From Pyrobaculum sp. WP30 (GTDB lineage: Archaea > Thermoproteota > Thermoprotei > Thermoproteales > Thermoproteaceae): DNA of 64,000 nucleotides. A program made the position numbers and the translations under genes. Positions within the stretch are counted from its first letter, which is position 1, and the number at the start of each line of letters is the position of its first letter. Below, in pieces: positions 9,809-21,530 of this stretch. Where the stretch lies: assembly GCA_001189275.1 (NCBI GenBank), contig CP012158.1:1417704-1481703 (forward strand), written 5' to 3'. The notes under the pieces are model-generated. The model was not told where the DNA came from. It made no database searches and saw only the letters and a program-made list of their open reading frames with translations.

Positions 9809-11236
9809 CTACTTATTATGTGTTATATCTCTTCCCAACACCTCCCTAGCTATGAGGATCGGCGCCAGCACCGAAATAAACATGGCGGTGGCTATGTCAA
9901 TGTTAATCACATAGGCGTCTCTGGAGGGGACCGAGAAATATACGGGGCCGTTGGGCGTGTTGAAGTACACATATGTGCTGTAATTTGTGAGGATCGTGCC
10001 GGCGACCGTGGGGGCTATCGCAGAGCCGAGGTTTCGAAAGACTGTGTTGAGCCCCGTGGCCGCGCCGAGGCGTTGTCTGGATACCGAGAATGTGAGTAGG
10101 TTTATCAGCGAGACGTTTAGTAAAGTCAAGCCCACGAAGCCTAGAGTCAGGTACGGAATCAGAGTCCAGATTCCGCTGTAGAGATGCGCGGCGGCCAGCT
10201 GGTAGCCGACTACGGCAAAGGCGACCCCGGCTACGGCTATCTTCTTCGCGCCTAGGCGCCACATGGCTCTTCCCGCCAGGGGCGCCACGATTATCTGCAC
10301 CGCCGCAGGTGGAAGCATGTAAAGCCCAGTCTGTAGCACCGTGACGCCGTAGCCGTAGGGCGGCGGCATCTGCAGGAGGTAGGATAGGTTTTGTGAATTC
10401 ATCTGGAAGGCATATGCAACTATCAATATGGCGAAGGTGGCGGCGGCGACATTTCGGTTAAATATGTCCCGCGGAATAAAGGGGTTGTCTGTCGTAAGCT
10501 CGTGAAGTATGAAGACGGCGGCGGACGCTACGGATAGGAGAAATAGAGTTACTATCCTCGGGGAGGTCCAGCCCCAGTCGGGTCCTCTGGAGATGGCCAG
10601 AAGGAAGGAGGCGGCGGCCAGGGCGAAGAGGGCTATGCCGAAGAGATCTACCTTACGCGGAGTCCTGTACCTACTCTCCCGTATGTAGAGCCAGACGGCT
10701 AGAGTCAGAAGCGCCGCAATAGGCGTAGCCGTGTGGTAGGTAGCCCTCCAGCCGAAGTTTTGAGCTATGTAACCTCCGACGGGCAGAGCTATTATTATGC
10801 CTACGCCAAACATGGCGCTGACCACGCCCTGGGCCGTGGGGACCATCTGAGGCGGGAACTCCTCTCTTATTAGAGAAAAGGCGAGTGGGAACATGGCCAT
10901 GCCTAGCCCCTGTATCGCCCTTGCGACGAGAAGAGATTCGAAGCTAGGCGCGTATCCGGTGAACGTGACGGCCGCGGCGTATGTTGCCATCACGGCCGTC
11001 AAAACCTTCTTCTTTCCATATATATCGCCGAGGTTTCCAAATACCGCCGCGCTTATGGTGCCCACTATTAAGTATATCGTCAATATCCACGACGCGTCTG
11101 CAGGCGTTACGTTGAACTCCGCCTGTATCTTAGGCAGACTGGGCATCAACATCGCCTCTGTATACATCACCAAAAGAGCGACAGAGCCCAAAAGCGGGGT
11201 GGCCCTCCAGGCGTATTTAATGTCGTAGCTATCCAC
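9809..11236 (-). CDS. MFS transporter, DHA2-like multidrug exporter
   Basis: This 475-residue membrane protein fits the 14-helix DHA2 family of proton-coupled exporters. Motif A is GNLGDIYGKKKVL. Motif C, diagnostic of drug/H+ antiporters, is seen as GVGIIIALPVGGYIAQNFGWR. ARAIQGLGMAMFPLAF matches motif B with its conserved Arg. The gene begins 8 bases inside the end of the surface-protein gene upstream and is followed after 6 bases by another MFS gene. This suggests one transcript coupling export with an envelope protein. Substrate unknown. Confidence 0.87.
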   Translation of the reverse strand: MDSYDIKYAWRATPLLGSVALLVMYTEAMLMPSLPKIQAEFNVTPADASWILTIYLIVGTISAAVFGNLGDIYGKKKVLTAVMATYAAAVTFTGYAPSFESLLVARAIQGLGMAMFPLAFSLIREEFPPQMVPTAQGVVSAMFGVGIIIALPVGGYIAQNFGWRATYHTATPIAALLTLAVWLYIRESRYRTPRKVDLFGIALFALAAASFLLAISRGPDWGWTSPRIVTLFLLSVASAAVFILHELTTDNPFIPRDIFNRNVAAATFAILIVAYAFQMNSQNLSYLLQMPPPYGYGVTVLQTGLYMLPPAAVQIIVAPLAGRAMWRLGAKKIAVAGVAFAVVGYQLAAAHLYSGIWTLIPYLTLGFVGLTLLNVSLINLLTFSVSRQRLGAATGLNTVFRNLGSAIAPTVAGTILTNYSTYVYFNTPNGPVYFSVPSRDAYVINIDIATAMFISVLAPILIAREVLGRDITHNK

Positions 11237-13586
11237 GGCGCCTCCTACGCGCAGCTATAGCCCCGCCGACTACAAGAAGCAGGATGGTAAGCGCCAGCGG
11301 AACCACCACAAATAAGTCTAAGCCTCCTCTCACCTCAACTGGCACGCCGACGTATTGAACCCCCGGAGTAAAGACCCCCGTCTGGTTCCACGTCACCACA
11401 AGCGTGAGCGAGTATACGCCGGGAACCGCCTTATCTGACACGTCCAGCAGAAAGGCAGTGGTGGCAGTGCCGCCGGGCGGTATGTCTCCCAGCACCCGTG
11501 TACCGGCGGCGGCAACTTCAGCGATGTTTGACACATGCGGCTCAAAGACTTGGGAGGGGGTCATCGTTATCTTCACGTTTTTTGCCTCTTCGGAGCCCAT
11601 GTTAGTTATGTTAACGATCAACACCGCCGTGGAGCCCGGGGCCGCGTTGTATATCCTATACCTTATGTCTAGGACATCTTTTTTCCTGACCTCTAGAGGT
11701 CCATGCGCCGCATATTCGCCGCCGCTCCACCTAGCCACAGCCACCACGTTGTAGTCGCCAGCAGACAGCTTGGACACGTCGAGGTAGTACGTGAGCGTGA
11801 CGGGAGAGCCAGGCGGAAGGTAGTCAATGGTGTAGCTCCGTCTGCCTAACGTTGCGTTTACCAGGACCACTGTGATGTTGCGGGCGACCACAGGCCCAGC
11901 GTTTATTACTTGGACCATAACCTGCGCCATGGAGGCACCCTCGAGAAGTCTGGGCGGCGTCACGACAATGTTTTGTATCGCCACCTCAGGCCGGCTCACA
12001 GACAGATAGAAGGTGTAATTAACGCCGTTTACCGAAACCACCACAGGGTATCTTCCCGCTGAGGCGTTGCTCGGCACCTGCACAGTCACATAAGCTGTAA
12101 ACGGTTGACCCTGGGGGAGATAAGGCACTTTGTACTCGCCAGGGCTCGCCAGGATGAGGGGGGTGTAGATCGATATTGCAAGGTTCTTAGCTGTGAAGGG
12201 GGCCGCCACCGTAAGCGTGCCAGACGCCAAGCCGCCCGGGTAGGAAAGAGGCGGGTTGAAAATAAGCAACACGTTGAAGTCCGGTCTAACCACCTCGTAG
12301 TAGAAGGTGTAGTTGACGCCGCCCACCGAGACCTCCAGCGGGTAGAGACCCGGTTGCGTCTCTTTCGGAATTTCCATCACAATATTCACGGTGATTGGCA
12401 TCTGCGGCGTAATGGCTGGAAGCTCCGTTGAGGCGCCTGTGAGGATTCTAAATGGCGTCTTTACGCGTATATTCACCCCCGCCATCGTATAGTTCGTGGC
12501 AACCACGAGAGTGACCTGAGCTAAAGAGCCTGGGTAGACCTGGGGCGGATTGAAATAGGCGTTGACGCTTATCCACGGCCGCGGCACGTAGACCTCTGCG
12601 TACCTAACGATGCAGGCCCCCGTGGAGTAACATATCTCAACCGGCACCCTCACCACTCCATAGGCGGTAAACACGGCCTGCACGGGGATTTGTAACTGGG
12701 TAAGCAGAGGCGTTTTCACTGCGTTTTCGCTTAATATTCTGACGCCTTCGCCATCTAACACGCGGACTGTGACGTTCTGTAAAGGCCCGGCGCCTCCCGG
12801 CGTTATTAAGAGCGTCACCATAGTAGGGGTGCCCAACACCGGGGGTTGCGCAGGCGTGGCCGCTATGTTTACGTCCGCGCCGCTTACCACAGGCAACTGG
12901 ATAGTTTTGTTGAAGACTATGGAGCCAGCGTAGCCCGACACGCCGTTTAACGTCACTGTGAGAGTTGCGTCGTAGAAGCCGGGCTTTAGGGATGCCGGCA
13001 GGACGAAGTTCAACACACAAGTGGCGTTTGACCTAGGCGGGATCGTCGCGTCGCATGTAGGCGTTGCGTTTAAGAACTGCGAAACGACGCCGCCGCTTAT
13101 AGACGCCTTGGCTCTCACGTAGTCCACAGTGGGGTTGAACAGGAGCACGGGAAGCTGGACCGATTGCCCCGCCACATATGCCGAAGGCCTCGCCACGGCA
13201 AGGGCAGAGAAGTCAAATGGAAGCACCTCCACGTCTAACGTGGCTTCTGCAGAGCGGAGAAACGTGTACGCCACAGCCCTAATTCTGTAGTAGCCAGGGC
13301 GGGCATCTAGAGGGACTTGCACAGCCGCCACGGCGGTGTAGGGGACGCCAGCCGACAACTGCTGGATCTGCACCGTAGAACCTGTGACCACCTTAAAAGG
13401 CGAGTCAATGTCGATGTAGACGTTGGTAAGCGGCTGAGCGGAGACTAACGTGATGTAGAGCTGAATAAGAGAGCCGGGATACACATAAGGAGGCGTATAA
13501 GACACAGCGATATTAAACGGAGCCGACTGCCCACTTACGAACAACACTAATACAAGTAGCGGAATTATCCGATATATCGATTGCAT
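11229..13586 (-). CDS. Secreted surface protein with repeated S-layer-type (COG1361-like) domains
   Basis: The frame is open from 13670, but the ATG at 13586 gives a clean signal peptide (MQSIYRIIPLLVLVLFVSG), so I prefer that start (785 aa). The body has at least four beta-sandwich repeats, each opening like YTPPYVYPGSLIQL, FNPPQVYPGSLAQV or FNPPLSYPGGLASG and closing with a GVNYTFY strand. This is the layout of COG1361 archaeal S-layer-like proteins. Many NxT/NxS sites suggest N-glycosylation. The C-terminus has one membrane helix (LFVVVPLALTILLLVVGG) and an Arg-rich tail, so the domain faces outward. Overlap with the MFS gene suggests a linked role, perhaps an external stalk. Confidence 0.8.
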   Translation of the reverse strand: MQSIYRIIPLLVLVLFVSGQSAPFNIAVSYTPPYVYPGSLIQLYITLVSAQPLTNVYIDIDSPFKVVTGSTVQIQQLSAGVPYTAVAAVQVPLDARPGYYRIRAVAYTFLRSAEATLDVEVLPFDFSALAVARPSAYVAGQSVQLPVLLFNPTVDYVRAKASISGGVVSQFLNATPTCDATIPPRSNATCVLNFVLPASLKPGFYDATLTVTLNGVSGYAGSIVFNKTIQLPVVSGADVNIAATPAQPPVLGTPTMVTLLITPGGAGPLQNVTVRVLDGEGVRILSENAVKTPLLTQLQIPVQAVFTAYGVVRVPVEICYSTGACIVRYAEVYVPRPWISVNAYFNPPQVYPGSLAQVTLVVATNYTMAGVNIRVKTPFRILTGASTELPAITPQMPITVNIVMEIPKETQPGLYPLEVSVGGVNYTFYYEVVRPDFNVLLIFNPPLSYPGGLASGTLTVAAPFTAKNLAISIYTPLILASPGEYKVPYLPQGQPFTAYVTVQVPSNASAGRYPVVVSVNGVNYTFYLSVSRPEVAIQNIVVTPPRLLEGASMAQVMVQVINAGPVVARNITVVLVNATLGRRSYTIDYLPPGSPVTLTYYLDVSKLSAGDYNVVAVARWSGGEYAAHGPLEVRKKDVLDIRYRIYNAAPGSTAVLIVNITNMGSEEAKNVKITMTPSQVFEPHVSNIAEVAAAGTRVLGDIPPGGTATTAFLLDVSDKAVPGVYSLTLVVTWNQTGVFTPGVQYVGVPVEVRGGLDLFVVVPLALTILLLVVGGAIAARRRRRG

Positions 13587-13742
13587 AGGTACAACATTAC
13601 CTAGACTATAAATACTTTTGTTGATAAGATGACTTCCCGGCGGCATCCGGCGGAAGCCGCAACACGCCATAACTAAGAAGCAACGTCCGGTAGGTAAACT
13701 CCATGATCCATAACGCTACAAAAAACGATGAACCGTTGCCTG

Positions 13743-13802
13743 CAGGTGTTGACTCACAGGTGTATTCACACTTGCGAGGAAGCACCTGTGAACGAGTACC
13801 TG
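13743..13802. promoter_or_regulatory. Symmetrical inverted repeat between surface-protein and thermopsin genes
   Basis: Two pairs of arms share one centre of symmetry. The inner arms are TCACAGGTG (13754-13762) and CACCTGTGA (13783-13791), a perfect 9-bp match. The outer arms are CAGGT (13743-13747) and ACCTG (13798-13802). A 6x6-base unpaired segment separates inner from outer arms, and the loop is 20 bases. The site lies downstream of the thermopsin-like gene and about 160 bases upstream of the surface-protein start. It could be an RNA hairpin controlling readthrough or a double operator for a dimeric regulator. Confidence 0.5.
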
Positions 13803-13829
13803 TTAGGAGAGTTGAAAGAGAAAAACTTG

Positions 13830-16136
13830 TTATTTTCTCCTCTTCTTCAGCGCAAAGGCGGCCGCCGGCGCGGCGGCTCCGGCGGCTGTGTAGGGGCTTA
13901 TGGGGAACGCCTCCACCGCCGGCTCGCACACCTCTTTTGTATACGTGGAGACTGTAGCCGAGCCGTCCAACCCGGCTTGTGCCGCAGTGCCGCAGAGCCT
14001 CACCGTGCCGAGCGGGTTAGGCACCCCCAACACGTCTCTCACCGCCGTCTTATACACGGCGTAGAAGAGCGGCTTGTAGACGCCAGGATTTGATGCAGTC
14101 ACGACCTCAGCCGGGGTGTACTCCACCCCGCCTACCACGGTGGCGTTCAGCCTCACGACGGCGCCCACATCCACCCACCCCTCCCACTCCTCCACGCCCA
14201 CAATCTTGACGTAGTGTTGTCTCTTGGCGTACTCCACCTTCAACGCAACCGGCCTCTCGACGACCACCTCCCCTACGGAGGGCTTAATCAGCCGGGTGCC
14301 GTTGCCGAAGTTGATGATGTCGGGGAACTTCAGCACGGTGCCTTTCGGCATCCAGCCGGTCGTTTTGTTGACCGGCGTCTCGACGGAGACCCAGTAGTAA
14401 ACCTCGGCGTACTCCGCCCTCAGCGCCACGGGCCTCTCCACGCGGAACTCCCTCGCCGAGGTGCCGTTGATCAACAGACCAGCGAAGCGGGTGCCGTTCG
14501 GCAGATCCCACGGATCTGCCAAACCCACCTTGAAGACGGAGCCCTCGTCGGCCCAGACCTCTGTCGAGTCGGCGGGAGCTATCAGCCGGATTAGGTATTG
14601 TCTCACGCGTGCGACTGATATCTCCGTCGGCTTTGCGACGGTTGTTTTGACTGTCTTCCCGACCGGCGCCCCGTCTACGTATACTTGCGATACGGCTAGG
14701 CGGGTTCCGTTGCTTAGGTAGACATCTCCCGGCTCGTAGGCGATGACGGCCCCCTCGGCAACCCACCTATACGCCGTACCGTTCCAGTCCCTGACCGCCA
14801 CGAGATGCTCACGGCGGAAAGAGTACGTCACGTTGAGTGGACGCGTTGCGGCCACCGCATCTGCGCCCAAGCTGTTGCCGAAGTAGAGCACCCGCGTCTC
14901 GTTCCCCATATACACCACCGGCGGACGCCTCAGATCCAGCAACGTGCCGTTCCTCACTGCGAACCACCTTGCGCCGTCTGCATCCACAACCCGCACTGGC
15001 ACGTAGCCGCTGTACAGCAGGGCAGGCCTGAACACGCCGGCGGAAAGCCTCGCCGAGCCGCCGCCTAGATACGCCACGGAGACGCCCTCGGCGGTCTCGC
15101 CGGTGTTGCCACCGAAGTTGTAGAGAAACGGAGGAGGCACATACGCCGTGCCGTTCCAATACTCAAGCCTGAGGTCTAAGTTAAGGCTCTTAAACACGGC
15201 ATGGTCACCACAGCAGATGCCACACACCACCAGCTCTATGTTCATTTGATGGCCGTCTCCCGTGAGGCCCTCCCTAGGAGGTGTTACGACAATCTTCACG
15301 TCTTTGGCCTTTACTAGAAGCGTCACGTTGTCGTACCACACCACACCCCTACCTACATCGTAGCCAAAGGCAAACCACGGCTGTCCATCTCTAGATAAAC
15401 CAACGCGGATGTATAGCGCAACGCTAATAGGAAGAGAAAGATACTGTGGGTTCAGAGCTCTTGCGTAAAACTTTTCATCTCTCACAACGCCTGTGCCTTT
15501 TATTGCATAATTTTGCATTACACCCTCGACAGCCGTGAGGTTCCAGATGTTATTGACAAAGTTAATCCAAAAGTCCCAGAGATCTACAACGTTTTGAAGA
15601 AGATAGTACTGTGTTTTTCCGTCGGTTCTTACCATGACCACTAAGTTTAGCTGGATGGAGAAGCCGTGGAACTTCTCGTTTACGCTGTAAGCGTCGAAGT
15701 TCTTGAGGGTGGCGAAGGCTCTGACCACCTGCGTCTCGTAGCTATACGCCACGGGTGGGTTGGTCATAGCTATGCCGTAGTCGGCGAGGCCTATGGGTAG
15801 CCTTGGCTCGCCCCGACAGGCCGTATACACCACGCCCGTGTTGTGGGGATTGCGCACCACCACCATGTCTCTAGTCCCCACCTCAAGCCTCAGCTCGGTG
15901 CCGGAGCTCTGCTGGACAGAGCCGGAGGCGTAGTAGATGTTGACCTCCACTGGCATGTCCGCCCAGAGGTATATGACCCCGCCTTCATGTTTGATGGAGT
16001 TGGAGAACTTAGGCGGGAGATACTCCATCACGCAGTTGCCTCCCTCCACAGCCGCAGGCATCTCAACGACGTATTGAGCCACGGCGAGGAACGCCAAGGC
16101 CAGAACCAAAACTCCCAACCTCACGCTGAAATCCAC
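13830..16136 (-). CDS. Thermopsin-family acid protease (peptidase A5), secreted
   Basis: The 768-residue protein starts with a GTG at 16136 and a signal peptide (VLVLALAFLAVAQ). Residues about 110-190 contain LPIGLADYGIA, then FSIQLNLVVMVRTDGKTQYYLLQNVVDLWD. This matches the core of thermopsins, pepsin-like acid proteases of thermoacidophilic archaea. The rest is beta-rich with many N-glycosylation sites and repeated Y-W-V-S/T segments. It ends in a short hydrophobic stretch and KKRRK, which may anchor it at the membrane. A TATTTAAA box about 15-25 bases upstream fits a leaderless transcript. It is larger than classical thermopsin (about 340 aa), so extra binding domains are likely. Confidence 0.72.
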   Translation of the reverse strand: MDFSVRLGVLVLALAFLAVAQYVVEMPAAVEGGNCVMEYLPPKFSNSIKHEGGVIYLWADMPVEVNIYYASGSVQQSSGTELRLEVGTRDMVVVRNPHNTGVVYTACRGEPRLPIGLADYGIAMTNPPVAYSYETQVVRAFATLKNFDAYSVNEKFHGFSIQLNLVVMVRTDGKTQYYLLQNVVDLWDFWINFVNNIWNLTAVEGVMQNYAIKGTGVVRDEKFYARALNPQYLSLPISVALYIRVGLSRDGQPWFAFGYDVGRGVVWYDNVTLLVKAKDVKIVVTPPREGLTGDGHQMNIELVVCGICCGDHAVFKSLNLDLRLEYWNGTAYVPPPFLYNFGGNTGETAEGVSVAYLGGGSARLSAGVFRPALLYSGYVPVRVVDADGARWFAVRNGTLLDLRRPPVVYMGNETRVLYFGNSLGADAVAATRPLNVTYSFRREHLVAVRDWNGTAYRWVAEGAVIAYEPGDVYLSNGTRLAVSQVYVDGAPVGKTVKTTVAKPTEISVARVRQYLIRLIAPADSTEVWADEGSVFKVGLADPWDLPNGTRFAGLLINGTSAREFRVERPVALRAEYAEVYYWVSVETPVNKTTGWMPKGTVLKFPDIINFGNGTRLIKPSVGEVVVERPVALKVEYAKRQHYVKIVGVEEWEGWVDVGAVVRLNATVVGGVEYTPAEVVTASNPGVYKPLFYAVYKTAVRDVLGVPNPLGTVRLCGTAAQAGLDGSATVSTYTKEVCEPAVEAFPISPYTAAGAAAPAAAFALKKRRK

Positions 16137-16296
16137 AGGGCTTTAAATAAAGAAACGTCTGAAAAGAGAGGAAAAATGGGTTTAAACAGGCACATGTTAT
16201 TAACGCAGTTACCCGCGACGCCGGATATAGTATCCGTGCCGCCACCAGAGGAGTTACCGGAGCTTGAGAGGAGCTACTTGAGGAGCTGGAGCTCTC

Positions 16297-16625
16297 CTAT
16301 TTCTCAATTTTTACATCGCCATTGTCGTATGTTTTTGTCATTGTTGTAGTACTGCCGTCACTCCCGGCAGTTAATGGTGTTGACCGCGTCTCCGTAGTTA
16401 CTAGACTGACCATACGCTACATCGCCCCTCTGAACGGTGGTACCACCTATGCTATTCGCGCCACCAGCACACTGAACACACCAATCCATCGGAGGCGAAT
16501 TGTAGACGTTGCCACCGACGTTGCCACTGGAAAGTGTTCTAGTGGCGCCTGGGTAGTTGGCTGTGGTTGCACTCTAGGCGTCTTGGTTGTTATCGTAGCT
16601 TGTGAAGTCGACGTGATGATTATTG
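16297..16625 (-). pseudogene. Remnant of a secreted Gly/Ser/Asn-rich protein
   Basis: On the minus strand, one frame contains MDWCVQCAGGANSIGG (from 16489) and continues to SSNYGDAVNTINCRE before a TGA at 16360. The next frame immediately carries SDGSTTTMTKTYDNGDVKIEK to a TAG at 16297. Joined by a one-base shift, they read like a continuous extracellular domain. Upstream, the first frame also holds protein-like sequence (TTANYPGATRTLSSGNVGG) behind an in-frame TAG. I recognise no family. The amino-acid bias and the shift suggest a decayed surface-protein gene just upstream of the thermopsin-like gene. Plus-strand frames here have less natural composition. Confidence 0.45.
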
Positions 16626-16752
16626 ACTTAAGCGGAGGCGGCTGAGGCTGACGCGCCGAACTTAACAGGCTACGGAGCCGGCATGCCGCACAGTCGACAT
16701 GTGGAATTGGCTACATATATCCGGTTTAGACAAAAACTGGAGAGTCGGTAGA

Positions 16753-16851
16753 CGCCGGGGGTGGGATTTGAACCCACGCCCCCGAACGGGGACGGGCTCG
16801 CTGCGCCCGGCTTAGCAGGCCCGCGCCTTGGACCAACTCGGCCACCCCGGC
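16753..16851 (-). tRNA. tRNA-Ser (GCT) with a 14-nt intron
   Basis: The minus strand gives acceptor GCCGGGG/CCCCGGC, a class II long variable arm, and a TTCAAAT T loop. The anticodon stem CGGGC/GCCCG encloses CTGCTA plus extra bases, giving anticodon GCT. The intron is 16799-16812. It forms a strict bulge-helix-bulge, with CTGC pairing with GCAG and 3-nt bulges TAA and CGA. CCA is not encoded, unlike the other three tRNA genes in the window. The first 31 bases of its 3' end are identical to those of the tRNA-Ser at 18235. Confidence 0.94.
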
Positions 16852-16866
16852 TGTGAGATGTTATGG

Positions 16867-17300
16867 CTACGGTTTTAAATTTTTCTCCTCTCTCGACTTT
16901 ACCACTCTATAATCTTTGTAGGTTATGCGGTAGCCTCGCGGAGCTAGAGACTCGTAGGGCATGAGACGCGCCGGCGGGTAGGGATACATCCTCTTGATGT
17001 TTTCAAGACCCGTCAATATCTTCTCTAGGTGCTCAACGGAGATACGCTAATCTCGTCCTCCTCTGACCAGCCCCACACCACCTCTCCAGACGATGGGATG
17101 CTTACATGAGGCCGTTTTGAGCGGTATGCGCCTACAGCCGCCGAACACCCAAAGGACCAGTTGCTACTAATTTCTGGAAATATGCCGTGCCAGATCAACG
17201 CCTTTGCGATGGCGCTTATTTGAGTCGGCGTGCCGTATATAACGGCAACGTCAGGCACAACCTCGGCGGTCTCCAGCGGCGAGTCATGTTTCAACGCCAC
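16867..17300 (-). pseudogene. Frameshifted, N-terminally truncated DUF169 protein
   Basis: The frame from GTG 17300 contains VVPDVAVIYGTPTQISAIAKAL, then CSAAVGAY, RPHVSIPSSGEVV and EEDEI, which follow the DUF169 pattern. It then breaks (…SVSPLST stop). In the adjacent frame the family tail continues as RISVEHLEKILTGLENIKRMYPYPP and ends at 16867. One base lost near 17045 explains the break. The N-terminal third of DUF169, with its conserved Cys region, is also missing. DUF169 is an uncharacterised family of about 230-260 residues. The relic lies directly upstream of tRNA-Ser(GCT). Confidence 0.68.
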
Positions 17301-17373
17301 TTTTATTATTTTTGACTATTAGCGAAAACACCTATAATCCCGACGTATGCAAGTTCGTGATGAGTAACACAGT

Positions 17374-18154
17374 CTAGGGTCCGATGCCCGCAGTGGCCAG
17401 GGCTGACCATAAGCAACTGAAGGCAGAGGTGAGACCCCATACATAACAACCTCTAAGAGACACGTCACCACCTGAGCAGTCTGCGGAATCCACCGGGCTC
17501 TTACCGGCGTTGTTTCTCACGTTTGGACCCCGCCGTTTAACAGCCAAGCCGCAGCCCCCCACAGCCACGTAGTGAAGGGGATGTTGCCACCTGCGTCTTT
17601 TGCGCCTGGATCAGCGCTGTGCCTCATGAGTATTGACACCGCCACACATATCCCCCGCCATGTTGCATGTGGACTTCTATCATGCCGCCTGGCTACAGCG
17701 GCGTAGAGAGACGCTCATCGGTTGTTATCGCCAGTTTTTTGGGCCAGCGCCGTATCCTATGAGCAACTCGGCAAGCTCGGTTCTGCCTAACTGCGCAACT
17801 ATGTGAAGCGGCTTCTTTCCCTCTTGCTCTCTAACGTCTAGATCCGCGCCCCTCTTAAGCAGAACCCCCACCACCCCGCATGTCCTTCCCCCACGGCTTA
17901 GCGGAGAGGCGTCTTGCAATAAACGTCGCGCATCCAGGTTCCACGCCGGCAGAGAGAAGAAGCCCCACAGCCCGCCACCACCAGCCTCAACCACCACGTG
18001 AAGCTACGCGTCGCACCCCCTCCCCGCACGTTGACATCTACGTCGCTGGAGACTAGCCTGTACAACTCGCCCAGGTCGCAACGCCTTGTCGTCTTAAACG
18101 AGTCCACGACGAATAGTTGGACTCCCAAGTAAGAGTTCTGTACGATACATGGAA
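17374..18154 (-). pseudogene. Ankyrin-repeat protein, degraded by several frameshifts
   Basis: At least three minus-strand frames must be joined. They give, in order, GELYRLVSSDVDVNV, then DVYCKTPL, then VVGVLLKRGADLDVREQEGK and KPLHIVAQLGRTELAELLIGYGA. After a stop comes ASLYAAVARRHD and ILMRHSADPGAKDAGGNIP, then VKRRGPNVRNNAGKSPVD. These are ankyrin repeats, recognisable from the L-L-x-x-G-A-D and G-x-T/K-P-L-H motifs. The breaks include shifts near 17930 and 17560 and an in-frame TGA near 17718. The intact gene would encode five or more repeats for protein binding. The N-terminus may start at the ATG near 18154. Confidence 0.75.
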
Positions 18155-18234
18155 ACTAGTGTTCCAGCTTATGCTGGGAACGCGAATCAGAGAGAGCTTT
18201 TCCCCAGTTATCTGGATGACGTTGTAAGAAAGAG

Positions 18235-18322
18235 TGGCGCCGGGGGTGGGATTTGAACCCACGCCCCCTTGACGGGGACGGGATCTCCAGTCCCGCGCCT
18301 TGGGCCGCTCGGCCACCCCGGC
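18235..18322 (-). tRNA. tRNA-Ser (GGA)
   Basis: The acceptor is GCCGGGG/CCCCGGC, the discriminator is G, and CCA is encoded at 18237-18235. The anticodon stem CGGGA/TCCCG encloses CTGGAGA, giving GGA, with no intron. The variable arm TCCCCGTCAAGGGGGC and T loop TTCAAAT are typical of serine tRNAs. It has the same orientation as tRNA-Ser(GCT) about 1.4 kb away. The two share a 31-bp identical 3' end (16753-16783 and 18238-18268) that brackets two pseudogenes. Confidence 0.96.
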
Positions 18323-18352
18323 CGTGTCTCCGTGTCTGTTTGTATTTAAGCT

Positions 18353-19120
18353 TTATCCCCCGATATAGACCTCGCGTACCTTGGGGTCGTTTGCCACTTG
18401 GTCCGGCAGGCCCTGCGCTATTACTTTTCCGCTTGCCATTGCGTAGACGTAGTCTACGTATCTGAAAGCTATGTCGATTCTATGCTCGATTACGAGGAAT
18501 GTAATCCCTTGCTGGTTTATGTCTTTAACTATTTTGAAGACTTCGTGTGCTTGGTCTACGGGAACCCCTGCGATGGGTTCGTCTAAAATTACGAGGTCTG
18601 CACCCGCCATCAAGGCCCGTGCCAGCTCTAGTAACTTCATTTCTCCTGCAGAAAGGAGGTAGGCAGGAGTGTCCCACTTGCCGTCGAGCCTAACGGCTTT
18701 GAGGATCTTAAAGGCTTTTTTGACTAATTCCTCTTCTTCTTTAACCCAGTTCTTCACAATGGCTGAAAAGACGCTCTCTCCGCGTTGGCCTCTAGCCACG
18801 GCCAAGAGATTTTCTAACACTGTAAGCCTCTGGAAGACCTGCGGTATTTGGAAAGTCCGTACTATCCCAGTTTCAAAGATCTTGTGGGGAGGCCACCCCG
18901 TGATGTTTATCGCCTTGCCGTCTGCCCTTGTATAAATCACCTCGCCTACCTCTGGCTTGTAGACGCCCGTGATTACGTTAACTAAAGTAGTTTTGCCGGA
19001 GCCGTTAGGCCCTATGATCAAGGTGATCTTCCCCCTTTCTACCTCAACATTCACCCCGTCTAGTGCACGAAATGCGCCGAACTGTTTCACGATGTCTTTA
19101 GTGGTTAAAATAGAGGCCAT
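18353..19120 (-). CDS. livG: Branched-chain amino-acid-type ABC transporter ATPase LivG
   Basis: The 255-residue ATPase has Walker A GPNGSGKTT (37-45), signature LSAGEMKLLELARAL, Walker B LVILDEP and the switch His in FLVIEHR. FGAFRALDGVNVEVERG and the long insert between Walker A and the signature are typical of LivG rather than LivF. It would power uptake of branched-chain amino acids or related solutes through LivHM. It lies 29 bases after the binding-protein gene on the same strand. No LivF gene is present in the window, so either LivG works as a homodimer or LivF is elsewhere. Confidence 0.9.
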   Translation of the reverse strand: MASILTTKDIVKQFGAFRALDGVNVEVERGKITLIIGPNGSGKTTLVNVITGVYKPEVGEVIYTRADGKAINITGWPPHKIFETGIVRTFQIPQVFQRLTVLENLLAVARGQRGESVFSAIVKNWVKEEEELVKKAFKILKAVRLDGKWDTPAYLLSAGEMKLLELARALMAGADLVILDEPIAGVPVDQAHEVFKIVKDINQQGITFLVIEHRIDIAFRYVDYVYAMASGKVIAQGLPDQVANDPKVREVYIGG

Positions 19121-19149
19121 TTGTGAAAAAACGCGTAGATTAAAAAGCG

Positions 19150-20463
19150 TTACTGGAAAAGAGGCTTGCCTTGGTCAAATACCACAATCTTTCTATCTGC
19201 GCCGTAGTAGTAGGCGGCGTCTACGTATTTGGGAGTTCCGCCCTCAAGCACCACGCCCCATATGACGTAGTTGGGGTACGCGCGGTCGCCGGCTGCGTCT
19301 AAGTAGACCTTCCCCGTTACGCCTTGGTATTTGCCTTCCTTACCCCACTGTTCGAGGGTCTCTCTAACTTTTACTGGGTCGTCTGTGCCGATGGAACAGA
19401 CGATCTGCATGAGCATCATGGCGGCGTCGTAGCCGTATGGGTCATAAGCAACTGGATCCTTGCCGTATTTGGCCTTGTACTCCTGTTTAAACTGCTGGTA
19501 CTTGGGGTCGTTGGGGTCCGGCGCTGCGATGGTGCCAAGCATCTTGCTGGCGGCCATCTCCTTACCCACCTGCTTTATCATGGCGTCGCTATATGCTATG
19601 CCGTCGGTTCCTATCCACCTTATTTTACTAAGAACGGGGTCTTGGGCGGCGGCTTGCACCGCGGCTATGCCGTCGTCTTCAAAGGTGACGAAGATCATGG
19701 CTGCGTCTGGACCGGGTTGGCCAAGAGCGGCAGATAGCTTCCTAATTACCTCGGGTACAGCTGTTGGGAAGGCCTTGGGGTCTGGGTCGTAGCCGGCTGA
19801 GGCGACGATTTGTATGCCGAGTTTCTTAGTCTCGTTTGCTATGGCGTTACTAAGCCCAAGGCCCCAAGCGTCGTTTCTATATATTATTACGGCCCTCTTT
19901 ACGCCGAGGTACTTAAGTAGGTCTGCAATGGCCATGGCTTGGGCGAAGTCTGTAGGTACTATTCTATACACCCAGTCGCCTGGTATCGCCAACAGCGGCG
20001 ACGTAGAAGACGGAGAGAAGATCAAGATCTTGTTCTGATCGGCAAACGACTTCACCGAATTGACTTCTCCGCTGGCCATTGGCCCCACGATGAGCCTAGC
20101 CCCCTTGGCATACAGCGTCTGTACCTTCTGCAGTGCCTGTTGCGGGTTTGTCCCTGTGTCTTCGACCAGTAGTTTGAATTCGTAGTTAGGACACATCTTG
20201 TTGGCGTCTTCAACAGCCAGCTCCACAGCATTTTTAACACCAATACCGTAAGACTGAAGACCGCCGGTCAAAGGCAAAGCCGCGCCGATGTAAACCGTCT
20301 TTTTCTGCGTCGTGGTAGGCGTAGTCGTCTGTGTAGGAGTTGTGGTCTGTGGAGGTGGGGTGGTTGTTGGGGGTTGTTGTCCTCCCATTGTGAGGAGTGC
20401 CGCTATTGCTGCTAGTACTACTACGACGGCCGCAATTCCTATATATAGGGTTTTTGAAGCCAT
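19150..20463 (-). CDS. livK: ABC transporter solute-binding protein (LivK-like, type 1 periplasmic-binding fold)
   Basis: The 437-residue protein starts with a hydrophobic segment (IGIAAVVVVLAAIAALLTMGG) and then a Thr/Pro/Gln-rich linker of about 25 residues. This is the usual crenarchaeal arrangement for a membrane-tethered binding protein outside the cell. The domain begins TVYIGAALPLTGGLQSYG and continues with VEDTGTNPQQAL and LIVGPMASGEV, the Leu/Ile/Val-binding-protein signature. Divergent transcription from the permease genes through a shared 107-bp region suggests joint control. The ligand may be an amino acid, amide or urea-like compound. Confidence 0.88.
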   Translation of the reverse strand: MASKTLYIGIAAVVVVLAAIAALLTMGGQQPPTTTPPPQTTTPTQTTTPTTTQKKTVYIGAALPLTGGLQSYGIGVKNAVELAVEDANKMCPNYEFKLLVEDTGTNPQQALQKVQTLYAKGARLIVGPMASGEVNSVKSFADQNKILIFSPSSTSPLLAIPGDWVYRIVPTDFAQAMAIADLLKYLGVKRAVIIYRNDAWGLGLSNAIANETKKLGIQIVASAGYDPDPKAFPTAVPEVIRKLSAALGQPGPDAAMIFVTFEDDGIAAVQAAAQDPVLSKIRWIGTDGIAYSDAMIKQVGKEMAASKMLGTIAAPDPNDPKYQQFKQEYKAKYGKDPVAYDPYGYDAAMMLMQIVCSIGTDDPVKVRETLEQWGKEGKYQGVTGKVYLDAAGDRAYPNYVIWGVVLEGGTPKYVDAAYYYGADRKIVVFDQGKPLFQ

Positions 20464-20570
20464 GGAATTGTGATTCCTACGATATAAATATTTTGAGTAT
20501 GTATATAACCATCTATCTTCTATATAGTTCGGTCTTAGTAAGGTTTATTTATGGCGCCTTTTTCAAGTCT
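20464..20570. promoter_or_regulatory. Divergent promoter region for the liv transporter genes
   Basis: This 107-bp AT-rich gap separates two opposite starts. For the binding-protein gene (minus), an AAATATTTATATCG box lies about 15-28 bases upstream of its ATG. For the permease gene (plus), GGTTTATTTATGG lies about 20-28 bases before ATG 20571. Both distances suit transcripts that begin at or near the start codon. No clear palindromic operator was seen. Confidence 0.55.
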
Positions 20571-21530
20571 ATGGAACTTGTCGTAGGGGTAGATTATCCA
20601 ACGCTTGCTAGGGCAATTATATTTTCTAATATCTATGTTTTGCTTAGTCTCGGCTTAAATCTGACATATATAACGACTAAGATACCGTCGTTTGCGCATG
20701 GCGACTTGGCCACTGTGGGGGCCTATGTGAGTTATCTCACCATTATCTTCCTTCTCCAGCCTTTGGGATTGCCCGCCAGTGTGTATCTCACGTTTCCTTT
20801 TGTGGCTCTGGTGACGGGTGCTGTGGCCGTCTTGACGTATATTGCGGTGTTTAGGCCAATGATCAGAAGAGGGGCTGGTATAACGCCTCTTATGATCGCG
20901 TCGTTTGGGTTACACTTCGTGATGTTTGCCGCCGTTGCCATCGTCGCCGATTATGTCCAGAACACCTACGGGGTATTGAGCAGAAATGTATTGCTGGCTA
21001 AATGGGAGTACATATGGCCTGGTACGGATCCCCTCACATCGGCTTTAATAAACACATCAATCATGGTCGTCGTTATTACGGCTCTTCTCTATTTGCTACT
21101 GTATAAGACTCGGTATGGCGTAATCATGAGGGCAAGCATCGATAACTTGTACCTTGCGAAGGCCGCCGGGATAAACGTGGAGAGAGTCTTCGCAATTGCT
21201 TGGCTCTTGATAGGCGCCGTGACTGGGATCGCAGGTGTTTACATGGCCATGTTCTTCCCAATGACGGAGGAGTTAGGCTGGCTTAGACTTGCCGTTGTGT
21301 TTGTGGCGTCGGTGGTGGGCGGCCTTTCTAACATATACGGAGCCGTTCTCGGCGGCTACGTGGTTGGGCTTAGCCTAGTCCTCGGCGCCGCTTATATCCT
21401 CACGCCGCTGGGCGTGCCGACCGAGTTCCAGCTTGTGATACCGTTTGCCTTCGTCATCGTGATATTGTTGTTCGCCCCCCAGGGTCTTGCCGGCATAATA
21501 TCAAGCCTAGTTCAGATGGTGAGAAGATGA
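20571..21530 (+). CDS. livH: Branched-chain amino-acid-type ABC permease LivH
   Basis: The frame is open from 20397, but the ATG at 20571 (MELVVGVDYPTLARAII) lies about 25 bases after a TATA-like box and matches the family start, giving 319 residues. About eight membrane helices are evident. IPSFAHGDLATVGAYVSY is the LivH signature near the N-terminus. The ATPase-contact loop is MRASIDNLYLAKAAGINVERVF, with the EAA-like Ala-Gly-Ile pattern. The C-terminus LFAPQGLAG is conserved. It overlaps livM by 4 bases. Confidence 0.9.
   Translation: MELVVGVDYPTLARAIIFSNIYVLLSLGLNLTYITTKIPSFAHGDLATVGAYVSYLTIIFLLQPLGLPASVYLTFPFVALVTGAVAVLTYIAVFRPMIRRGAGITPLMIASFGLHFVMFAAVAIVADYVQNTYGVLSRNVLLAKWEYIWPGTDPLTSALINTSIMVVVITALLYLLLYKTRYGVIMRASIDNLYLAKAAGINVERVFAIAWLLIGAVTGIAGVYMAMFFPMTEELGWLRLAVVFVASVVGGLSNIYGAVLGGYVVGLSLVLGAAYILTPLGVPTEFQLVIPFAFVIVILLFAPQGLAGIISSLVQMVRR

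What the first reader, a model, noticed from the sequence alone, without database searches (positions are those of the whole stretch)
16753..18322. Gene graveyard between two tRNA-Ser genes sharing 31 identical bp
Two tRNA-Ser genes in the same orientation, with an identical 31-bp 3' end, enclose a truncated frameshifted DUF169 gene and a shattered ankyrin-repeat gene. A third decayed gene lies just outside. The tRNA 3' ends form ready-made direct repeats for recombination or for integrase action, so this may be the scar of an integrated element or a site of repeated insertion.
Basis: partly seen in the sequence, partly recalled or inferred. Interest (0 to 1): 0.55.

Follow-up and report, generated by a model that had tools for sequence, protein, structure and literature searches.

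The report
Broken insertions between paired tRNA-Ser genes
In this heat-loving archaeon the short gap between two neighbouring serine tRNA genes has been opened up by insertions that later decayed, at a tRNA pair which in related species also attracts mobile DNA and chromosome breaks; it is a neat but largely familiar kind of recombination hotspot.

Summary
Two intact tRNA-Ser genes (GCT, 16753-16851, with a 14-nt intron; GGA, 18238-18322; both minus strand) share exactly 31 bp at the 3' end and enclose the C-terminal half of a DUF169 gene and a shattered ankyrin-repeat gene.

Seven genus relatives keep the tRNAs as a tandem pair 39-222 bp apart, without these genes; here the gap is 1,386 bp. 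The contents are derived insertions, not decayed natives. A C/D-box-like sRNA (17357-17406, +), present in this spacer in five relatives, still separates the two remnants, suggesting two insertions.

The 31 bp are not mere isoacceptor similarity: six relatives share only 8. The window's GGA gene has taken on a GCT-type T-arm.

In relative G003 an 8-kb integrase element sits in this same tRNA-Ser(GCT), with a tRNA fragment at its far end and the empty site in G005; in G010 the pair is split. But no integrase and no tRNA fragment was found in the window insert, so 'integrase scar' is plausible, not shown. A ~107-bp sequence abutting the GCT 3' end recurs after two tRNA 3' ends in another genus and is unexplained.

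The parts
18238..18322 (-). tRNA-Ser(GGA), intact, with a T-arm of the GCT type (both affected stem pairs changed)
16753..16851 (-). tRNA-Ser(GCT), intact, 14-nt intron near the 3' side of the anticodon stem; form without the intron identical to G004
18238..18268 (-). 31-bp identical 3' end, copy in GGA
16753..16783 (-). 31-bp identical 3' end, copy in GCT
17434..17916 (-). ankyrin-repeat gene remnant, frameshifts and stops; one alignment runs to the C-terminal end of the intact ankyrin gene of this genome
17357..17406 (+). C/D-box-like sRNA (C box GTGATGA, D box CTGA, guide ...AGTGGCCAGGG), native to this spacer
16885..17282 (-). DUF169 (COG2043) remnant: C-terminal half, one frameshift near 17043
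16646..16752 (-). 'sequence X': conserved stretch starting at the first base after tRNA-Ser(GCT); also right after two tRNA or tRNA-like 3' ends in genome G018
13830..16136 (-). thermopsin-family gene, open frame intact, extra in this genome between tRNA-Ser(GCT) and the conserved gene 11229-13670; its C-terminal third is 78% identical to a second copy elsewhere in the genome

Best explanation
The interval is the opened-up spacer of a conserved tandem tRNA-Ser(GGA)-tRNA-Ser(GCT) pair that acts as a recombination hotspot in Pyrobaculum. Shown: foreign gene pieces (C-terminal ankyrin, C-terminal DUF169) lie on either side of a retained C/D-box-like sRNA, a further 3 kb was added just downstream of GCT, and the GGA gene has acquired the T-arm of another tRNA-Ser. 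Inferred: the pieces came in by recombination at tRNA 3' ends, most probably by elements with a tyrosine integrase that use tRNA-Ser genes as attachment sites (an element with an attP of the GCT, CGA or TGA type entering GGA would rewrite its 3' half), after which integrase, displaced tRNA fragment and gene starts were deleted. Both tRNAs remain intact and presumably functional; the remnants presumably do nothing.
For: Seven genus relatives (G001-G005, G007, G009) have the pair in tandem with 39-222 bp between the genes, beside the same ABC-transporter gene; the window has 1,386 bp. The insert has no DNA match at E 0.001 in the 10 genus relatives, and in the other 30 relatives only an 89-bp hit in G016 at another place (at most 9 candidates a genome scored). 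GGA differs from the intronless GGA genes of G004, G007 and G009 at 5 positions, 4 of which are two complete T-stem pairs, all four as in GCT. The same tRNA-Ser(GCT) carries an integrase element in G003, with a tRNA fragment at the far end and the empty site in G005; relatives of that integrase lie beside tRNA fragments and tRNA-Ser(CGA) and tRNA-Ser(GCT) genes of G006 and beside a fragment of tRNA-Glu(CTC) in the window's own genome. In G010 the pair is split by rearrangement, with an FtsX-like permease gene by the sRNA. Sequence X begins at the first base after the tRNA in the window and after two tRNA or tRNA-like 3' ends of G018. [quoted passage not shown]
Against: No displaced tRNA-Ser fragment: nothing over 11 nt outside the two tRNAs in 13600-18400, and Rfam lists no third tRNA there. 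No integrase domain in the frames scanned, and four integrases and a resolvase of the genus give only chance matches there (best E 0.31). The insert DNA matches no phage record, the DUF169 piece no plasmid or viral contig. T-arm exchange between tRNA-Ser genes also occurs without any insertion (G001: 61 identical bp, spacer 39 bp). The retained sRNA between the two remnants needs two insertions or a more complex history. T-arm homogenisation goes with separation of the pair in 2 of 2 separated and 1 of 7 tandem genomes (G000 included; G006, whose tRNAs are on different contigs and both of the GGA type, and incomplete G008 left out); too few to test usefully. Attachment at GGA itself was not seen in any genome.
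Confidence: 0.5

Rival explanations
1. Two unrelated ordinary processes: gene conversion homogenised the T-arm of GGA with another tRNA-Ser, and separately gene fragments landed by illegitimate recombination in a gap that tolerates them. No integrase was involved.
For: T-arm type of GGA varies across the order and G001 shows exchange without insertion; no tRNA-Ser fragment or integrase in the insert; both remnants are partial genes; [quoted passage not shown]
Against: Does not explain why this locus is also an integration site (G003), a rearrangement breakpoint (G010) and the place of a further 3-kb insertion in the same genome, nor why sequence X starts at the tRNA 3' end.
Confidence: 0.4
2. 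Simple decay in place of native genes that relatives have lost.
For: Both remnants run in the direction of the tRNAs and are decayed.
Against: Seven relatives with the tandem pair have neither gene there; the DUF169 remnant is the only match to itself in this genome and its nearest relatives found are in another family of the order (53-55%).
Confidence: 0.07
3. A single large element entered and the sRNA came with it or was copied back.
For: G010 has a second, degenerate sRNA-like stretch beside its GGA gene (by eye), so sRNA copies can move here.
Against: The sRNA lies in this spacer in G003, G004, G005, G007 and G009, and the exact 14-nt core occurs once in G000 (four further places with one mismatch), so the window copy is most simply the native one.
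Confidence: 0.1

Closest known systems
Integrative elements of archaea with pNOB8-type tyrosine integrase in tRNA genes (review PMC8371274, passages seen)
   Same: Attachment in the 3' half of a tRNA gene; the element of genome G003 in this very tRNA-Ser(GCT) has an HTH domain and weak matches to two integrase families (25 and 24 bits, each under its cut-off of about 27), and matches integrases of Sulfolobales plasmids at 24-29% identity in the ten listed of 13 records
   Different: The window insert itself has no integrase and no tRNA fragment that I could find
Insertion at the tRNA-Thr locus of Caldiarchaeum subterraneum (PMC3293823, passages seen)
   Same: 1.9-kb insertion beside a tRNA, linked by its authors to a pNOB8-type element, with change of the tRNA body
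   Different: There a putative recombinase ORF and a tRNA fragment remain; here neither was found
Integrase-driven chromosome inversions at tRNA genes in Thermococcus (PMC5495485, passages seen)
   Same: tRNA genes that are att sites are also rearrangement borders, as in G010 for this pair
   Different: No enzyme identified here; the G010 case is inferred from gene order
tRNA intron transposition in Thermoproteales (Fujishima 2010, not seen; as told in PMC4090602, passages)
   Same: Exchange of stretches between different tRNA genes of one genome
   Different: In the window the exchanged stretch is the T-arm body, not an intron; G001 shows body and intron together

Membership tests
Integrase element scar at a tRNA gene | Intact tRNA plus displaced 3' fragment bordering the insert | tested here: not met
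   No tRNA-Ser match over 11 nt outside the two tRNAs in 13600-18400; Rfam lists only the two tRNAs in 13600-20600
Integrase element scar at a tRNA gene | Integrase gene or remnant | tested here: not met
   Pfam on 28 distinct frames between 13833 and 18155 shows none; integrases of the genus give only chance matches; the integrase relative in this genome is at G000:C1:570593-571843
Integrase element scar at a tRNA gene | Empty site in a relative | tested here: met
   Seven relatives have a 39-222 bp spacer
Integrase element scar at a tRNA gene | Target tRNA is used as attB by known elements | tested here: met
   G003 and G006 elements in tRNA-Ser(GCT); not seen for GGA
Gene conversion between tRNA-Ser genes | Tract in one gene matching a paralogue against its orthologues | tested here: met
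   Four T-stem positions, two pairs; holds against six relatives; G010 shares the window's type and some other genera too
C/D box sRNA | C box, D box at fitting distance, conserved guide | tested here: met
   Motifs and guide in G000 and in G003, G004, G005, G007, G009, G010
C/D box sRNA | rRNA target beyond chance | tested here: inconclusive
   12-bp match in the 23S locus, but shuffled guides often do as well or better; 16S not tested
C/D box sRNA | Expression | not testable with these tools
   no RNA data

The most novel reading that the evidence does not exclude
Sequence X (16646-16752) belongs to a family of ~107-bp units that attach exactly at tRNA 3' ends and move between different tRNA genes (Ser, Leu and a tRNA-like 3' half) across genera, either as the arm of an undescribed tRNA-targeting element or as an RNA released from tRNA trailers by 3' processing; the opened tRNA-Ser pair would be the result of such tRNA-end recombination.
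Probability: 0.2. Interest if true: 0.55.

Novelty: new member of a known kind. Interest (0 to 1): 0.33.

Why it matters
It gives a comparative view of one tRNA pair as a hotspot: a tandem pair in seven relatives, a complete integrase element in one of them, a rearrangement in another genome and decayed inserts here. It also shows that a shared 3' end between tRNA genes can be the product of recombination and not just of common ancestry, which matters when such repeats are read as att sites. Sequence X is a concrete lead for a tRNA-end-associated unit.

Tried and rejected
Rejected: 'the two tRNAs are att copies made by an integration' (ancestral tandem pair). Rejected: in-place decay of natives (seven empty spacers). 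Rejected: the extra thermopsin gene as a tandem copy of its neighbour 11229-13670 (no significant similarity, best E 0.30). Considered and not supported: sequence X as the end of the G003-type elements (model R1, searched in 78 sources, the window and 77 of the loci held, found X only in the window and in the G018 stretches L216, L271 and L272, L216 and L271 being the same place); X as a strongly folded RNA (z -0.3, -1.7 and -2.4 on the tRNA strand, two compensated pairs among three sequences); X as a known Rfam family. DUF169 genes lie 6-9 kb from tRNA-Ser genes in G023, G038 and G039: no relative of the G003 integrase in those stretches, so dropped. C/D guide target in 23S: not above shuffled guides. 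Searches without result: integrase in viral contigs and phages, X in viral contigs, phages, plasmids, insert in phages, DUF169 piece in plasmids and viral contigs. The species tree (six proteins, ten genomes) places G010 outside the clade of G000 (support 61) and has weak inner nodes; whether the GGA T-arm change in G000 and G010 is one event or two therefore stays open. The donor of the T-arm (GCT, CGA or TGA) cannot be told apart; in this genome the other three tRNA-Ser genes, CGA or TGA by eye, carry T-loop introns.

Full report
What is there. The window lies in a 1,993,257-base single-contig genome whose genus relatives include Pyrobaculum oguniense (G002, contig length equal to CP003316.1). 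Both tRNA-Ser genes are real and intact: GGA 18238-18322 and GCT 16753-16851 with a 14-nt intron. Between them, on the same strand, lie an ankyrin remnant (about 17916-17434) and the C-terminal half of a DUF169 gene (17282-16885) with one frameshift near 17043.

The ancestral state. In seven genus relatives (G001, G002, G003, G004, G005, G007, G009) the two tRNAs form a tandem pair beside the orthologue of the ABC-transporter gene 18353-19120, with 39, 75, 222, 130, 202, 120 and 132 bp between the genes. Of the ten genus relatives the other three are G010 (pair split, below), G006 (the tRNAs lie on different contigs) and G008 (74% complete, no GGA match). The window has 1,386 bp. None of the seven has DUF169 or ankyrin at this place (spacers read), and the insert has no DNA match in the genus outside this genome (41 genomes at E 0.001: one 116-bp hit to this genome's own ankyrin gene, one 89-bp hit in G016).

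A possibly live gene in the graveyard. The spacers of G003, G004, G005, G007 and G009 hold a C/D-box-like sRNA (GTGATGA ... GTGGCCAGG[GT] CTGA). The window keeps it at 17357-17406 on the plus strand, between the two remnants. G010 has it beside the orthologue of gene 11229-13670. In G001 and G002 I see none in the spacer. That the native sRNA separates the remnants suggests two insertions. Its 23S match is not better than that of shuffled guides, so its target is not established.

The 31 bp. In six relatives GGA has the T-arm CCCGGGTTCAAATCCCGG and GCT the T-arm CGTGGGTTCAAATCCCAC; only 8 bp at the 3' end are shared. In the window both have the GCT type (31 bp), as in G010; in G001 both have the GGA type with the same T-arm intron (61 bp). 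Against the intronless GGA genes of G004, G007 and G009 the window gene differs at five positions, four of them two complete T-stem pairs. Point mutation is a poor explanation; a tract copied from another tRNA-Ser is a good one. In other genera of the order both T-arm types of GGA occur, so such exchange recurs. [quoted passage not shown]

The same gene is an attachment site elsewhere. In G003 about 8 kb are inserted at the 3' end of tRNA-Ser(GCT), with a tRNA fragment at the far end (97.8% identical to the window's GCT over 46 bp), an open frame with an HTH domain and weak integrase matches next to the fragment, and a serine resolvase. The DNA beyond the fragment continues as the uninterrupted site of G005. 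Integrase relatives lie next to tRNA fragments in G006 (tRNA-Ser CGA and GCT) and, in the window's own genome, next to a tRNA-Glu(CTC) fragment some 2.4 kb from the intact gene. The nearest named relatives found are plasmid integrases of Sulfolobales (13 records, all under 60% identity; 24-29% in the ten listed). In G010 the transporter gene is followed by an inverted GCT, while GGA lies about 520 kb away, turned against its old neighbour, beside an FtsX-like permease gene, the sRNA and the orthologue of 11229-13670: the pair was split by rearrangement. In Thermococcus, tRNA genes that serve as att sites are also inversion borders (PMC5495485, passages).

Just outside the interval. Between GCT and gene 11229-13670 the window has about 3 kb (a thermopsin-family gene, debris, sequence X) where four relatives (G002, G005, G007, G009) have that gene, or only a part of it (G002, G009), within about 40-200 bp of GCT. 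In G004 and G001 it was not found beside GCT, and in G003 the element intervenes. X (16646-16752) starts at the first base after the tRNA. Its relatives, 79-80% identical, lie at the first base after a tRNA-Leu(CAA)-like gene with introns (read by eye; ARAGORN finds none) and after a tRNA-like 3' half in G018. The tRNA-end boundary of the X alignment was my choice; of the BLAST pieces, the one to L271 and the one between the two G018 copies run across it, the one to L272 stops short of it. X may be an element arm, a trailer RNA or a recombination footprint; folding evidence is weak.

Judgement. That the interval is a derived, decayed insertion at a recombination hotspot is well supported. That an integrase made it is plausible but lacks the two marks of such a scar, the displaced tRNA fragment and the integrase.

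Noticed in passing
window 16646-16752; L271 2475-2583; L272 2276-2392: A conserved ~107-bp sequence begins at tRNA or tRNA-like 3' ends in two genera; function unknown.
   Followed up: partly
L082 576-8783: 8-kb integrated element in tRNA-Ser(GCT) of G003 with an integrase-like frame, a serine resolvase and a weak DNA primase small subunit match.
   Followed up: partly
L164 10500-13055 (G000:C1:570499-573054): Small (about 2.4 kb) element-like stretch between tRNA-Glu(CTC) and a fragment of it, with an integrase 61% identical to that of G003.
   Followed up: partly
L272 2180-2275: tRNA-like 3' half with no recognisable 5' half just upstream and a TATA-like stretch before it; could be a displaced fragment or a split tRNA half (by eye).
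   Followed up: no
L166, L167, L168: Other tRNA-Ser genes of this genome carry T-loop introns; two of them share the same 22-nt T-loop intron.
   Followed up: no
L213 8543-10100: G010 has a second, degenerate copy of the C/D-box-like sRNA beside its tRNA-Ser(GGA), with an FtsX-like permease gene between the copies.
   Followed up: partly
L169, L170, L171, L164 and L180, just after tRNA 3' ends: A hairpin-like motif CCTCTTGACA...TCAAG (or CTTTACA...TGTAAAG) recurs right after several tRNA genes or fragments in the genus (by eye).
   Followed up: no
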